DNA of 54,511 nt. It comes from a virus. The notes under the pieces are model-generated. The model worked only from the letters and a program-made list of their open reading frames with translations. It had not been told where the DNA came from and searched no databases. Both the position numbers and the translations under genes were made by a program. Below are positions 17,827 to 54,511 of the stretch, one piece after another. Where the stretch lies: the IMG/VR virus record IMGVR_UViG_3300042475_000999, positions 1 to 54,511 of that record; one strand, given 5' to 3'. Each line of letters opens with the position of its first letter. The stretch's first letter is position 1.

Positions 17827-17895
17827 CATTACACATGGCCACCATTGGCCGAGCATATTCGCACCTGATATAGCCTGCACACAGGCAAAAAGAAA

Positions 17896-17919
17896 GGACC
17901 TAGAGGTAAGTCTAGATCC
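17896..17919 (+). promoter_or_regulatory. Leader hairpin upstream of the primase-helicase
   Basis: GGACCTAGA and TCTAGATCC pair in eight of nine positions around a GGTAAG loop, 32 bases before the start at 17952. No U-run follows, so a translational or processing role is likelier than termination. Confidence 0.4.
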
Positions 17920-17951
17920 TTATAAAGTAGCAACTTGCAAAGAAAAGCACT

Positions 17952-20039
17952 ATGTCATCAGGATTCGCATCACAAACAACACAGCCGAGTGAATTATACA
18001 CAAACTTCCTATCGGCAAGGGCATTTGAGGATACAGATATACAGGCCTTGGGCCTATCTCTCCTTGACCCCGAGGAATGTTACCAATTACTAGGCCACAC
18101 TCGTGAGTGGAGCATCAAAATCCCGTATTTTGATATGCAGGGCCAAGAAACCGGCTTTAATCGGGTCAGGATACTGACACCGAAGGGCAAAATGAAGTAT
18201 TCTCAGGCTCGAGCCAGCGGAAGCCACGTATACTTTCCACCAACTATCGGTTGGAAGCAGGTCGCGCAGGATGTAGATGTTCCCATCATCATCACCGAGG
18301 GTGAGTTTAAGACATGGGCTATCACCAAGCAAATCAGCAAGGACACCCTTAACTACGCCACCTTAGGTTTAGCCGGTGTTACAAGTTGGACTGACAAATC
18401 TGGTTTACACCTGCACAAAGACCTAATGAAGATCATATGGCAGCGTAAGACCAGCTTCGCTGAGAAGCACCGCAAGGTTTACATTGTCTTTGATTATGAT
18501 GGGGCCGGTGAGGATGGTGAGCCTAATGAACAGGTTGGCATGGCAGAAACAAAGCTTGCTGTCACGCTCCGTGGGCTAGGGGCTGAGGTACACCTTTGCC
18601 GTGTCGGCAGGTTCGGTGCTGGTAAGGGTAGCAAATACGCTATTGATGACCATCTACAAGCCGGCGGCAATCTTGGCCAAGTCCTCACCAGCACCAGCAC
18701 GGTGATGAACGGCATCGACACCCTCGAGACCAAGCTTTATGAGTTCAAAACTCAGTACGCACTTATCAACGGCGATGTGATCAGGCTCAAAGACGGCTTA
18801 ATTCTTGGTTGGAACAAGGCACGTATTGACGCCGCGCAGGATTACTTCGTGCAAGTCACGCAACGGCCAAACGGTGGCACCAGCAGCAAGACCATCTATA
18901 TCTTGGATGCCTATAAGGACTGGGCAAAGCGGTGTGATCTGGATGGCGTAGGCATGTATCCCGAGTATCAAGGCCTCACTATCACACCAACTAGGCATTA
19001 CAACCTGTTCAAGGACTGGTCCAATGAGCCCGTTGTGGGTGATCCTACACCTTACCTTGAGTTTTGTGAGTACTTTTTTAGAGATGAGCCTGCTTTTGCC
19101 GACTACTGGCATAACTGGGTGGCCAATGTTGTCCAATTCCCATGGAGAAGGAACTACACCACACCGCAGTTCGCATCCTCCATTGAGGGCATCGGCAAAT
19201 CAGCTATCGCCGAGTTTATAGCCGAGATGCTAGGCATTGGGGACGGTGGGCCTGCAGCTATCATCGGGCCTGATGAGCTGTTTGGCAACTTCAACGGTAT
19301 GTTGAAGGGTAAGATCTTCATAGTCGTGAATGAACCATCGTCTGATCGTGACGACCACTCGGCGAAGCTTAAGAACTACATCACATCTAATGAGCTCACT
19401 ATCAACAATAAGTATGGCGCCCAGTACGCCATCACTAACTACATCAACTTCGTATTCACGACAAATAAGAGCTACGTCACGCACATGGGTGATACCGCAA
19501 GGCGTGAAGCTATCTACAGTCCTGCTAGCTTGTCCAACCAAGAAACACATCCCAAGGTCATGGCTTTGATGAAGTGGGCCAAGGCGCAGCAGGGCTTTGG
19601 CATCATGCTTAACTGGTACATGAATCGTGATATATCGAGCTTTGATTGCAAACAGGCAGCACCAAAGACTCAGTATCGTGAGACTGCGATCCAGCTTTCC
19701 AAGACTCCACTTGAAGCTTTTGCATTGGAACTTAAAGCTTGGGTCAATGATCACCTTGATGGCATGGCTGCTTTTACAGCGCCGCAGCTGCAGATTCTGT
19801 GTGAGCGTTGGGGCCACGACAGCAAGGCCAAGGCGCAATACATACGTAAAGCTCTGCAACCCCAAGGGACAATTGATCCTAGTAAGCTCATCAAAGTGCA
19901 TGGTAAGCCTTCACGATATACCACGTTTATCACGTCTGAGGTAACATTAGCTCGAAGGGTCGAGCCGACTTGGTCACAGGTTGTCACGAGAACAGAGGAC
20001 GCAATGCAGCGTGAATTGGAGCAAAATGGTAGCTTCTAG
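17952..20039 (+). CDS. Primase-helicase: Toprim-like (DUF3854) plus SF3-type ATPase (DUF5906), 695 aa
   Basis: Residues 50-245 form a Toprim-like primase half, with ITEGE at 114-118 and FDYDGAG at 180-186, then YAIDDHL. Residues 370-560 carry a D5/SF3-like helicase ATPase: Walker A variant EGIGKS at 412-417, Walker B KIFIVVNEP at 454-462, and sensor region NFVFTTNK near 499-506, followed by RREAIYSP. The C-terminus is winged-helix-like. It would unwind the origin and lay primers for the family A polymerase. It is the only replication gene on the plus strand and lies directly before the candidate iteron origin. An SD is not obvious; the leader hairpin may matter. Confidence 0.9.
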   Translation: MSSGFASQTTQPSELYTNFLSARAFEDTDIQALGLSLLDPEECYQLLGHTREWSIKIPYFDMQGQETGFNRVRILTPKGKMKYSQARASGSHVYFPPTIGWKQVAQDVDVPIIITEGEFKTWAITKQISKDTLNYATLGLAGVTSWTDKSGLHLHKDLMKIIWQRKTSFAEKHRKVYIVFDYDGAGEDGEPNEQVGMAETKLAVTLRGLGAEVHLCRVGRFGAGKGSKYAIDDHLQAGGNLGQVLTSTSTVMNGIDTLETKLYEFKTQYALINGDVIRLKDGLILGWNKARIDAAQDYFVQVTQRPNGGTSSKTIYILDAYKDWAKRCDLDGVGMYPEYQGLTITPTRHYNLFKDWSNEPVVGDPTPYLEFCEYFFRDEPAFADYWHNWVANVVQFPWRRNYTTPQFASSIEGIGKSAIAEFIAEMLGIGDGGPAAIIGPDELFGNFNGMLKGKIFIVVNEPSSDRDDHSAKLKNYITSNELTINNKYGAQYAITNYINFVFTTNKSYVTHMGDTARREAIYSPASLSNQETHPKVMALMKWAKAQQGFGIMLNWYMNRDISSFDCKQAAPKTQYRETAIQLSKTPLEAFALELKAWVNDHLDGMAAFTAPQLQILCERWGHDSKAKAQYIRKALQPQGTIDPSKLIKVHGKPSRYTTFITSEVTLARRVEPTWSQVVTRTEDAMQRELEQNGSF

Positions 20040-20042
20040 TAC

Positions 20043-20208
20043 ACTGCAGCAGTTACCTGTTACTCGACTGTTACTTCGCAAAGCCTTATCCAGATTGAAT
20101 AGTAACAGAGTAACAGTAAGTAACAATATTTTTATAAAAGATATTAGATATAAGAATATAGTATAGCTATATAGTTTTCTGGACCATATGTTACCTTGTT
20201 ACCGTTAC
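20043..20208. other. Candidate replication origin with GTTAC iterons
   Basis: Nine copies of GTTAC or its complement fall within about 160 bp of non-coding DNA after the primase-helicase gene. Forward copies lie at 20052, 20059 and 20070; inverted copies (GTAAC) at 20102, 20110 and 20120; an AT-rich stretch of about 60 bp (20125-20185) follows; and three more forward copies lie at 20190, 20198 and 20204. Spacing is 6-11 bp. Iterons flanking an AT-rich unwinding element next to the initiator/helicase gene is standard origin architecture. No copy of comparable density is seen elsewhere, except a GTAAC/GTTAC pair at 17698. Function is inferred. Confidence 0.6.
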
Positions 20209-20257
20209 CTGCTGAATAAAATGTACACACTTCCAACTTTATGATTACAATCCGCAC

Positions 20258-54100: not shown

Positions 54101-54511
54101 TTTGCCTAGCAACTTAACCGGTACAGGCAATGTTGTAGCAACAAGTGCAGACGGCACTGATCTTACATTTGAACAAGTATTCTCAGGCGAAACTACTAGT
54201 GAGCAAGATACAAGCTTAACAAACTATGTCAATAGTGTTTTAGGCCCTGCAAAAATTGAGCCTACTTTTGGTACAGGATCGCTTATAGGTACTACACCAA
54301 CTGGTGCGCTTACAACAACACCAGTAAGTACAACGTCTACAACCACAGGTGCGCTTTCTACAACACCCGCAAGTACAACACCAGTAAGTACGACACCAGT
54401 AAGTACGACACCAGTAAGTACGACACCTGCAACTACAGGCGCGCTTACTACAACACCTGCTGTTACGACTACGCCTAATGGCGCAGTAATAACAAATCCT
54501 TTGTCAACGGT
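51186..54511 (+). CDS. N-terminal part of a giant virion protein (continues at 1-1115)
   Basis: ATG 51186 opens a frame with no stop to the window end, at least 1108 residues. The first 40 residues (MARFSDEQIADFVAANIGNP, SAAATYGISVADISRATGYA) form helical repeats. A Pro-rich linker follows, then Ala/Gly/Thr-rich hydrophobic stretches (LNIIAPGAGAIIGNALGVSA), long Thr/Gly repeats with TTVADT, then a helical, charged part (about 53030-53700) and a Thr/Ser/Pro repeat tail (TTPVSTTPVSTTPVS). The protein resembles podovirus internal or tape-like proteins. It joins in frame to the left-edge ORF if the shared CGGT is merged. The last codon is incomplete. Confidence 0.75.
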   Translation, partial: MARFSDEQIADFVAANIGNPEAIASAAATYGISVADISRATGYAPSAVNTYFETASVAPPTPVYTPPPAPAPAYVPPPTTVRASAPTSGRVLEDTDEASIEQQVAAAPVLHSYSQVDPNNPAIVRQISYSTGEVLGTHILAGGGDQGLAKAAMPVIGMALNIIAPGAGAIIGNALGVSATTGAAILQAGLNVAGGASVEDAIKGVALSQVGGAATSALNSAIGPISSNPLVNNIVSNVASSVVNSVVTNQPITNLATTVLGTVVNTTVTAETGNSAIGAAAATLVTTGGNTTAAFNTLVNSAAGSFKATDAANIINQLQNSTAVTTGTEVAATVADAAGSTTGTTGTGALSTVGTGTGGSFDDFNLTDNSTVDTTVADTTGTTVADTTATTTTGTGTPSVLASVNNNVVSDAGNGVTLTGVDANTQATLDAIQNVNNIGTGTGALSTVGTGTTVADTSGAGTTVADTSGTGALGTVTTPVVDTNTYVDTEFGDLQGAIDRNAATTTKPLTFNEAFAANRLAFGPNATFEWNGKLYNTGTAAEAAAAADAKINALNKTNLSTVTNASQTVAAQNDTAARDAGTSNQSDAETRRLTALNNTLVLGNAPNESNAETQRLMESGQRSAADNLSAMGAQALGTTIRGAGSLITNIGNTYAQLTGDFDYSNTATKIGQELAELAQSKDGYGIDVQKNRIMQAVKQSESADFWDKPKIIGAAIIKNPIGFFDIAGTEAVEELPETAIQIGAALMTGGGSLALSSARLIQGTASVVGSFMEVFGSSGKETYQKSIAQGDSKQVAQDKSYISAGLNALAEMGPDFIADKALVAPLMKSLVDKTLTSVGAGYATNTAAGILSNFVAGAAQNYITAYTVNPNTANWSTALSNGVFESFIGGTVQTAMSTPGTVIDTGAVIGRDYSGNPVTVQQVLDGNSNIDLSTVDSSTPIATSSNGDSVTVGASMLYGDSVGLGSDVTGSILPSNLTGTGNVVATSADGTDLTFEQVFSGETTSEQDTSLTNYVNSVLGPAKIEPTFGTGSLIGTTPTGALTTTPVSTTSTTTGALSTTPASTTPVSTTPVSTTPVSTTPATTGALTTTPAVTTTPNGAVITNPLST
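54331..54450 (+). repeat. Thr/Ser/Pro-coding short repeats near the right end
   Basis: Repeated units of about 15 bases such as ACACCAGTAAGTACGAC occur several times between 54331 and 54450, coding for TTPVS or TTPAS. They precede, across the circle junction, the VTPA repeats at the left end. Such near-identical repeats favour assembly collapse. Confidence 0.8.

What the first reader, a model, noticed from the sequence alone, without database searches (positions are those of the whole stretch)
20043..20208. Nine GTTAC iterons around an AT-rich element: candidate origin
Three forward, three inverted, a 60-bp AT-rich stretch, then three forward copies, directly after the primase-helicase gene. 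The first two triplets are in opposite orientation and could also fold into a long hairpin. No protein-coding sequence explains them. A further GTAAC/GTTAC pair sits in the divergent control region, and an ACTGCAGC(A/G)GTTA block is shared between 17657 and 20043, linking the two sites.
Basis: seen in the sequence. Interest (0 to 1): 0.65.

Follow-up and report, generated by a model that had tools for sequence, protein, structure and literature searches.

The report
Phage replication origin with co-evolving iterons
The nine short repeats around an AT-rich stretch are very probably the phage's replication origin, and across related phages the repeats all change spelling together, in step with one or two amino acids in the tail of the neighbouring primase-helicase, so the pair behaves like a lock and key that evolution has repeatedly re-cut.

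Summary
Observation confirmed: nine GTTAC copies (3 forward, 3 inverted, an AT-rich element, 3 forward) lie between a DUF3854-DUF5906 primase-helicase and terS. The AT element is the most AT-rich 64 bp of the 54.5-kb genome. In about 85 distinct arrays from IMG/VR relatives the layout '< < AT-rich > >' is kept, with spacing clustered at 65-73 and 77-80 bp.

The iteron is TGT-NNN-Y, and NNN changes in concert at nearly all copies of a genome: TAC, AAC, AAT or ATC. The change tracks the helicase's predicted C-terminal winged helix, not terS. One near-identical pair (L013/L016) has identical TerS and almost identical helicase, except in the wing and the following loop, yet most iterons differ. 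Residue 646 is Leu in 23/23 T-type and 0/57 A-type genomes; this beats all tree-simulated nulls. A basic residue at 648 goes with C at core position 3. Two genomes whose array has moved away from the helicase gene still match.

Best reading: an initiator-helicase origin of the SaPI Rep/Cch2/P4-alpha kind. The hairpin and the link to the divergent control region are not supported. No binding or replication experiment exists.

The parts
17952..20039 (+). primase-helicase gene (695 aa): DUF3854 (res 101-239, with the TEGE...DYDG motifs typical of TOPRIM) + DUF5906 SF3/D5-type helicase (res 411-518) + C-terminal domain
   Evidence: Pfam DUF3854 E 2.4e-13, DUF5906 E 1.9e-17; PHROG 1156 DNA primase; nearest solved structure by sequence is the phage NrS-1 primase helicase part, 6k9c
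19707..20024 (+). codons of the predicted winged-helix domain, residues 586-691 (a1 586-602, b1 605-608, a2 610-619, a3 628-638, b2 639-649, b3 652-661, a4 674-691)
   Evidence: AF2 on 56 sequences, mean pLDDT 82.3; weak structural matches, including the NrS-1 C-terminal region, Z 4.6-4.8
19887..19895 (+). codons 646 (Leu) to 648 (Lys) in wing strand b2: proposed specificity residues
   Evidence: Leu646 matches T at core position 1 in 80/80 representatives; basic 648 matches C at core position 3 in 76/80 by the alignment used
20051..20057 (+). iteron 1 (AGTTACC), left set
20058..20064 (+). iteron 2 (TGTTACT), left set
20069..20075 (+). iteron 3 (TGTTACT), left set; this set is the last to change in intermediates L027 and L016
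20101..20107 (-). iteron 4 (TGTTACT), middle inverted set
20109..20115 (-). iteron 5 (TGTTACT), middle inverted set
20119..20125 (-). iteron 6 (TGTTACT), middle inverted set
20117..20180 (.). AT-rich element, proposed unwinding region; 84% AT, most AT-rich 64-bp window of the genome
20189..20195 (+). iteron 7 (TGTTACC), right set
20197..20203 (+). iteron 8 (TGTTACC), right set
20203..20209 (+). iteron 9 (CGTTACC), right set
20222..20251 (+). promoter-like TGTACA-18-TACAAT before terS (consensus match only)
   Evidence: PHROG 309 E 1.7e-14; identical TerS in L013 and L016 with different iterons

Best explanation
The array is the phage's replication origin. The primase-helicase encoded just upstream binds the TGTTACY iterons through its C-terminal winged helix. 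The invariant core is two iteron sets in opposite orientation on either side of an AT-rich element, at a conserved helical phase. They would assemble two helicase rings facing each other across the AT-rich DNA, melt it, and let the attached primase domain prime both strands for the phage's own family A polymerase. The left, third set is accessory. Specificity: the conserved TGT would be read by the helix-turn-helix, while the variable three-base core is read by the wing, with residue 646 setting core position 1 (Leu for T, other residues for A) and residue 648 setting core position 3 (Lys/Arg for C, non-basic for T). Shown here: the array, its conservation, its layout and phasing, the concerted changes, and their co-variation with the wing and not with TerS. 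Inferred: binding, ring loading, melting and replication start.
For: Nine sites conserved in close relatives; one shared TGT-NNN iteron type per genome, cores TAC/AAC/AAT/ATC. 82 of 85 arrays give '<' AT-rich '>' by the automatic rule; the other 3 do so too at their last long gap. Gap lengths cluster at 65-73 (63 arrays) and 77-80 (14), none at 74-76. Most AT-rich window of the genome. Near-identical pair L013/L016: helicase 1-590 differs by 0.7%, TerS by 0, residues 641-680 by 25%; the 10 changes after residue 640 all fall in b2, b3 and the following loop, and middle and right iteron sets switch completely. In close pairs with different iterons the wing is 4.8x and the loop 4.4x as diverged as in pairs with the same iterons; helix a3 0.93x. 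Leu646 rule 80/80, 9 changes on the tree, 7 of 7 independent pairs, p 0.016; 450 tree simulations never exceeded 0.94. Partial Mantel: TerS adds nothing once the C-terminal domain is known (r 0.01), nor does the helicase core (r -0.02). New loci obey the position-1 rule 14/14 where an adjacent array exists, 9 of them with new sequences. In L123 and L417 the array has moved away from the helicase gene and still matches its wing type. Precedent: the Cch2 C-terminal domain binds iterons downstream of its gene (PMC7581432).
Against: No binding, footprint or replication data. GC skew shows no sharp turn at 20 kb. The position-3 rule is weaker: 4 of 80 fail by the alignment used, all in one divergent clade where a one-residue shift would repair 3, and only 4 supported independent pairs exist. 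In the two displaced genomes the array stays near terS rather than the helicase, so an added role near terS is not excluded. The full-length helicase model is poor. The new test loci are mostly close to training clades. Several relatives lack a full left set.
Confidence: 0.84

Rival explanations
1. Packaging site (cos/pac): the repeats are bound by the terminase small subunit encoded just downstream, as R sites are in lambda cosB.
For: Array lies about 50 bp upstream of terS, and stays near terS in the two genomes where the helicase gene is elsewhere.
Against: L013 and L016 have identical TerS but different iterons; best TerS column predicts core position 1 at 0.84 against 1.00 for helicase 646; TerS adds nothing in the partial Mantel test. 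Long contigs of relatives run through the array and break at other, differing points (coordinates), not expected of a cos end.
Confidence: 0.05
2. Operator: the array controls transcription of the terS/late operon (promoter-like TGTACA-18-TACAAT at 20222-20251), with the helicase or another protein as regulator.
For: The promoter-like sequence lies directly right of the array; terS and structural genes follow.
Against: An operator needs no AT-rich element between inverted site sets at helical phase; the protein that tracks the specificity is a helicase. A dual role remains possible.
Confidence: 0.07
3. Stem-loop origin as in plasmid pRN1 and phage BIP-1: the structure, not the repeat sequence, is recognised.
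For: Left and middle sets of the window can pair, z -3.7; a stem-loop 3' of the replication gene is essential in pRN1 (PMC4234260).
Against: Structure lost in L016, L094, L095 while iterons are kept; many arrays have left and middle sets in the same orientation, so they cannot pair.
Confidence: 0.03
4. The co-variation of iterons and helicase tail is mere linkage: adjacent DNA exchanged together by recombination.
For: The helicase tail and the array are contiguous, about 15 bp apart, in most genomes.
Against: In L013/L016 the spacers between iterons and the AT element stay nearly the same while most iteron copies change one base; the array of L027 is partly changed; matches persist when the array is away from the gene; the equally close TerS does not co-vary.
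Confidence: 0.05

Closest known systems
Staphylococcal SaPI Rep / SCCmec Cch2 initiator helicases and their origins
   Same: D5-type helicase whose C-terminal domain recognises short iterons directly downstream of its own gene; two hexamers proposed (PMC7581432; SaPI origin work by Ubeda et al. cited there). In Cch2 the isolated C-terminal domain was shown to bind its repeats.
   Different: Here a phage genome with its own terminase and family A DNA polymerase, a DUF3854 primase fused to the helicase, a different iteron sequence (TGT-NNN-Y), and a natural series of matched specificity changes.
Phage P4 alpha protein with ori/crr
   Same: Primase + SF3 helicase + C-terminal winged helix in one protein binding repeats at the origin (comparison in PMC4234260).
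   Different: P4 has two separate iteron regions, ori and crr (own knowledge); only one array is seen here.
Phage NrS-1 primase-polymerase
   Same: Nearest solved structure by sequence in the helicase part; its C-terminal ~100 residues are among the weak structural matches to the modelled winged helix, at the highest sequence identity of that list (18%, Z 4.6-4.8).
   Different: Prim/Pol-type primase; an 8-nt recognition sequence in two copies, no iteron array reported in the passages read (PMC7102993).
Geminivirus iterons and Rep specificity determinants
   Same: Short iterons that differ between close relatives in step with the initiator (PMC12548392).
   Different: Rolling-circle Rep of small ssDNA plant viruses, an unrelated protein; here a dsDNA phage helicase.
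pRN1 ORF904 origin
   Same: Origin directly 3' of a primase-SF3 helicase gene with C-terminal winged helix (PMC4234260).
   Different: pRN1 uses a stem-loop without iterons; here iterons without a conserved stem-loop.

Membership tests
SaPI Rep / Cch2-type initiator-helicase replicon | SF3/D5-type helicase domain in the initiator | tested here: met
   DUF5906 E 1.9e-17; NrS-1 helicase match
SaPI Rep / Cch2-type initiator-helicase replicon | Iteron array directly downstream of the initiator gene, with an AT-rich element | tested here: met
   displaced in 2 genomes
SaPI Rep / Cch2-type initiator-helicase replicon | C-terminal dsDNA-binding domain that binds the iterons | tested here: inconclusive
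   winged helix predicted and co-variation very strong, but binding not measured
SaPI Rep / Cch2-type initiator-helicase replicon | Carried by a satellite island or cassette | tested here: not met
   IMG/VR virus record with its own terminase and DNA polymerase genes; hence 'works like', not 'is a SaPI replicon'
Phage P4 alpha/ori-crr replicon | Fused primase-helicase-winged helix initiator | tested here: met
   TOPRIM assignment of DUF3854 rests on motifs read in the sequence
Phage P4 alpha/ori-crr replicon | Second iteron region (crr) away from ori | tested here: not met
   single cluster of TGTTACY in the window; the GTTAC cluster at 27-200 is coding repeat
pRN1-type stem-loop origin | Conserved stem-loop 3' of the replication gene | tested here: not met
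Classical iteron plasmid origin | DnaA boxes beside the iterons | tested here: not met
   no TTATCCACA in the window; relaxed matches not in the array
cos/pac terminase recognition site | Repeat sequence recognised by TerS | tested here: not met
   identical TerS with different iterons; no TerS column tracks them; direct binding not testable here
Any replication origin | DNA synthesis starts there in infected cells | not testable with these tools
   metagenomic virus, no culture or infection data

The most novel reading that the evidence does not exclude
The wing of this helicase family carries a simple recognition code: residue 646 sets core position 1 and residue 648 core position 3 of the TGT-NNN iteron. 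It has been rewritten repeatedly (at least 9 changes at position 1 on the tree), each time with the whole origin array rewritten to match, giving a natural panel of apparently orthogonal phage origins with intermediates caught part-way.
Probability: 0.6. Interest if true: 0.8.

Novelty: new variant of a known kind. Interest (0 to 1): 0.7.

Why it matters
It is a well-sampled natural experiment on how an initiator and its origin change specificity together. About 80 initiator-origin pairs, four core sequences, repeated switches, near-identical pairs and partly switched arrays make a DNA-recognition code for an SF3 initiator helicase directly testable with one small domain and four oligonucleotides. 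It also gives a cheap way to find origins in uncultured phages, and predicts which phages could share or block each other's origins.

Tried and rejected
All-5-mer scan statistic: weak by itself, since common 5-mers cluster by chance. Near-DNA search of the phage collection: no match. Cultured or named relatives PW916, AXL_3 and the Manatee Spring phage: no array of at least five same-core TGTNNN sites found. Full-length AF2 model: pLDDT 50.8, its fold search meaningless. Foldseek with the C-terminal model: nothing significant. Sequence search of PDB and Pfam with the C-terminal profile: no credible match. Rfam: nothing. Hairpin: rejected as a conserved feature. Link to 17657/17698/17704: rejected. 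DnaA boxes: none in the array. No paper on an origin for DUF3854/DUF5906 phage proteins found in the open library searched; subscription papers not covered.

Full report
What is there. The window is a 54.5-kb IMG/VR virus record. Nine GTTAC copies lie exactly as described between the stop of a 695-aa primase-helicase (17952-20039; DUF3854 + DUF5906) and terS (20258): three forward, three inverted, an AT-rich stretch, three forward. As a bare 5-mer the cluster is not extraordinary; as TGTNNN sites with one shared core it is (7 in 160 bp; simulated genomes 4-6). The AT-rich stretch is the most AT-rich 64 bp of the genome, and no DnaA box lies in it.

Conservation. Thirty-six relatives from IMG/VR and further sets carry such an array downstream of the same gene. 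Close relatives keep all nine sites at nearly the same spacing, although the bases before the array differ. Across 85 distinct arrays the sites just left of the AT-rich gap point left and those just right point right in 82 by an automatic rule; the three others do so at their last long gap, as their printed spacings show. The distance across the gap clusters at 65-73 bp (63 arrays) and 77-80 bp (14), with none at 74-76: about one helical turn apart. The left-most set is variable in number and direction, so the core is 'sites < AT-rich > sites'. The arrays are not independent of each other by descent, so these counts are descriptive.

The iterons change together. Each genome uses mainly one core in TGT-NNN-Y: TAC (as in the window), AAC, AAT or ATC. 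L016, L017, L026, L030 and L027 have GTAAC where the window has GTTAC, while the flanking TGT..Y keeps its orientation, so this is a base change and not an inversion. L027 and L016 are intermediates: middle and right sets fully changed, the left set still holding two and one old copies. A tree of the helicase without its C-terminal part needs at least 14 changes of core type.

What reads them. L013 (TAC) and L016 (AAC) are nearly the same virus here: helicase residues 1-590 differ by 0.7% and TerS not at all, but ten substitutions fall between 645 and 670. The C-terminal domain is predicted as a winged helix with good confidence (pLDDT 82); these substitutions lie in the wing strands b2 and b3 and the loop after them, none in helix a3. 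In close pairs with different iterons the wing is 4.8 times and the loop 4.4 times as diverged as in pairs with equal iterons, a3 0.93 times. Partial Mantel tests: the C-terminal part explains iteron type beyond the helicase core; TerS or the helicase core add nothing once it is known. The best TerS column reaches 0.84 for core position 1.

A possible code. Of 695 columns one is perfect: residue 646 is Leu in all 23 representatives with T at core position 1 and never in the 57 with A (V, M, A, I, P, S or T there). The tree needs 9 changes of each, 7 of 7 independent pairs on supported branches agree (p 0.016), and in 450 traits simulated on the same tree the best column never passed 0.94. Residue 648 is Lys/Arg in 57 of 61 genomes with C at core position 3 and in 0 of 19 with T; the four misses are one divergent clade where the alignment is unsure and a one-residue shift gives Lys in three and Thr in L031, whose array is mixed AAC/AAT. 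Position 3 has only 4 supported independent pairs, so it is a weaker claim.

Tests on fresh data. Fifteen further contigs were fetched after the rule was set. In the 14 with an array next to the gene the position-1 rule held in all; 9 of these were new sequences, mostly of known clades. The fifteenth, L417 (45% identical to any earlier one), has no array beside the gene; its Met646/Lys648 predict A.C, and the record holds TGTAAC pairs about 2.4 kb away. L123, likewise without adjacent array, has a wing like the TGTATC genomes and TGTATC pairs elsewhere in its record. Both displaced arrays lie upstream of terS, in L417 with a further ORF between. So the match does not depend on physical closeness.

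Mechanism. Shown: array, layout, phasing, concerted change, co-variation with the wing. Inferred: the helix-turn-helix reads TGT, the wing reads the core, two helicase rings load facing each other over the AT-rich DNA, melt it and prime. [quoted passage not shown] P4 alpha binds origin repeats with a winged helix (PMC4234260).

Rivals. A TerS packaging site is disfavoured by the identical TerS of L013/L016 and by contig breaks that fall at different places: 18.0 kb upstream of the helicase in the window against about 33-37 kb in the long contigs of L006, L009, L024, L027 (computed). A stem-loop origin is disfavoured because the fold is lost in L016, L094 and L095. A role in late transcription cannot be excluded.

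Novelty. The kind (initiator helicase, iterons, AT-rich element) is known. What I did not find described is this phage family's origin and its repeated, apparently code-like, matched changes; the paper search covered open-access papers only.

Noticed in passing
1-230 and 54300-54511: Both window ends lie in coding repeats (Thr/Pro/Val/Ala-rich), one of which holds ten GTTAC/GTAAC copies by codon use; the assembly probably broke in a repetitive gene, consistent with a circular or permuted genome.
   Followed up: partly
17894-17921: A hairpin in the leader of the helicase gene (AAGGACCTAGAGGTAAGTCTAGATCCTT) is kept in relatives with compensating changes (e.g. AAGGGC/GCCCTT in L013) and replaced by another strong hairpin in L020: possible attenuator.
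   Followed up: no
L020-L023, L028, first ~200 bp after the helicase stop: Extra ~185-bp block between helicase and array; in L020-L023 it contains a long inverted repeat (TTGATCACCTTCTATT...AATAGAAAGTGATCA), MITE-like.
   Followed up: no
L194:6759-6990 and L197:3234-3420: Very distant DUF3854-type helicases in bacterial MAG contigs have iteron arrays (TGTGACG; TGTTCCACTT) in two opposed sets inside the 3' end of the gene itself.
   Followed up: partly
L426:1015-1587: ORF between terS and the displaced array in the L417 genome; its start resembles a GIY-YIG homing endonuclease (read by eye).
   Followed up: no
array of most relatives, just left of the right-hand iterons (window 20165-20181): A second conserved motif, roughly (CG)TATATAGTTTTC, sits at the right end of the AT-rich element in nearly all relatives; role unknown.
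   Followed up: no
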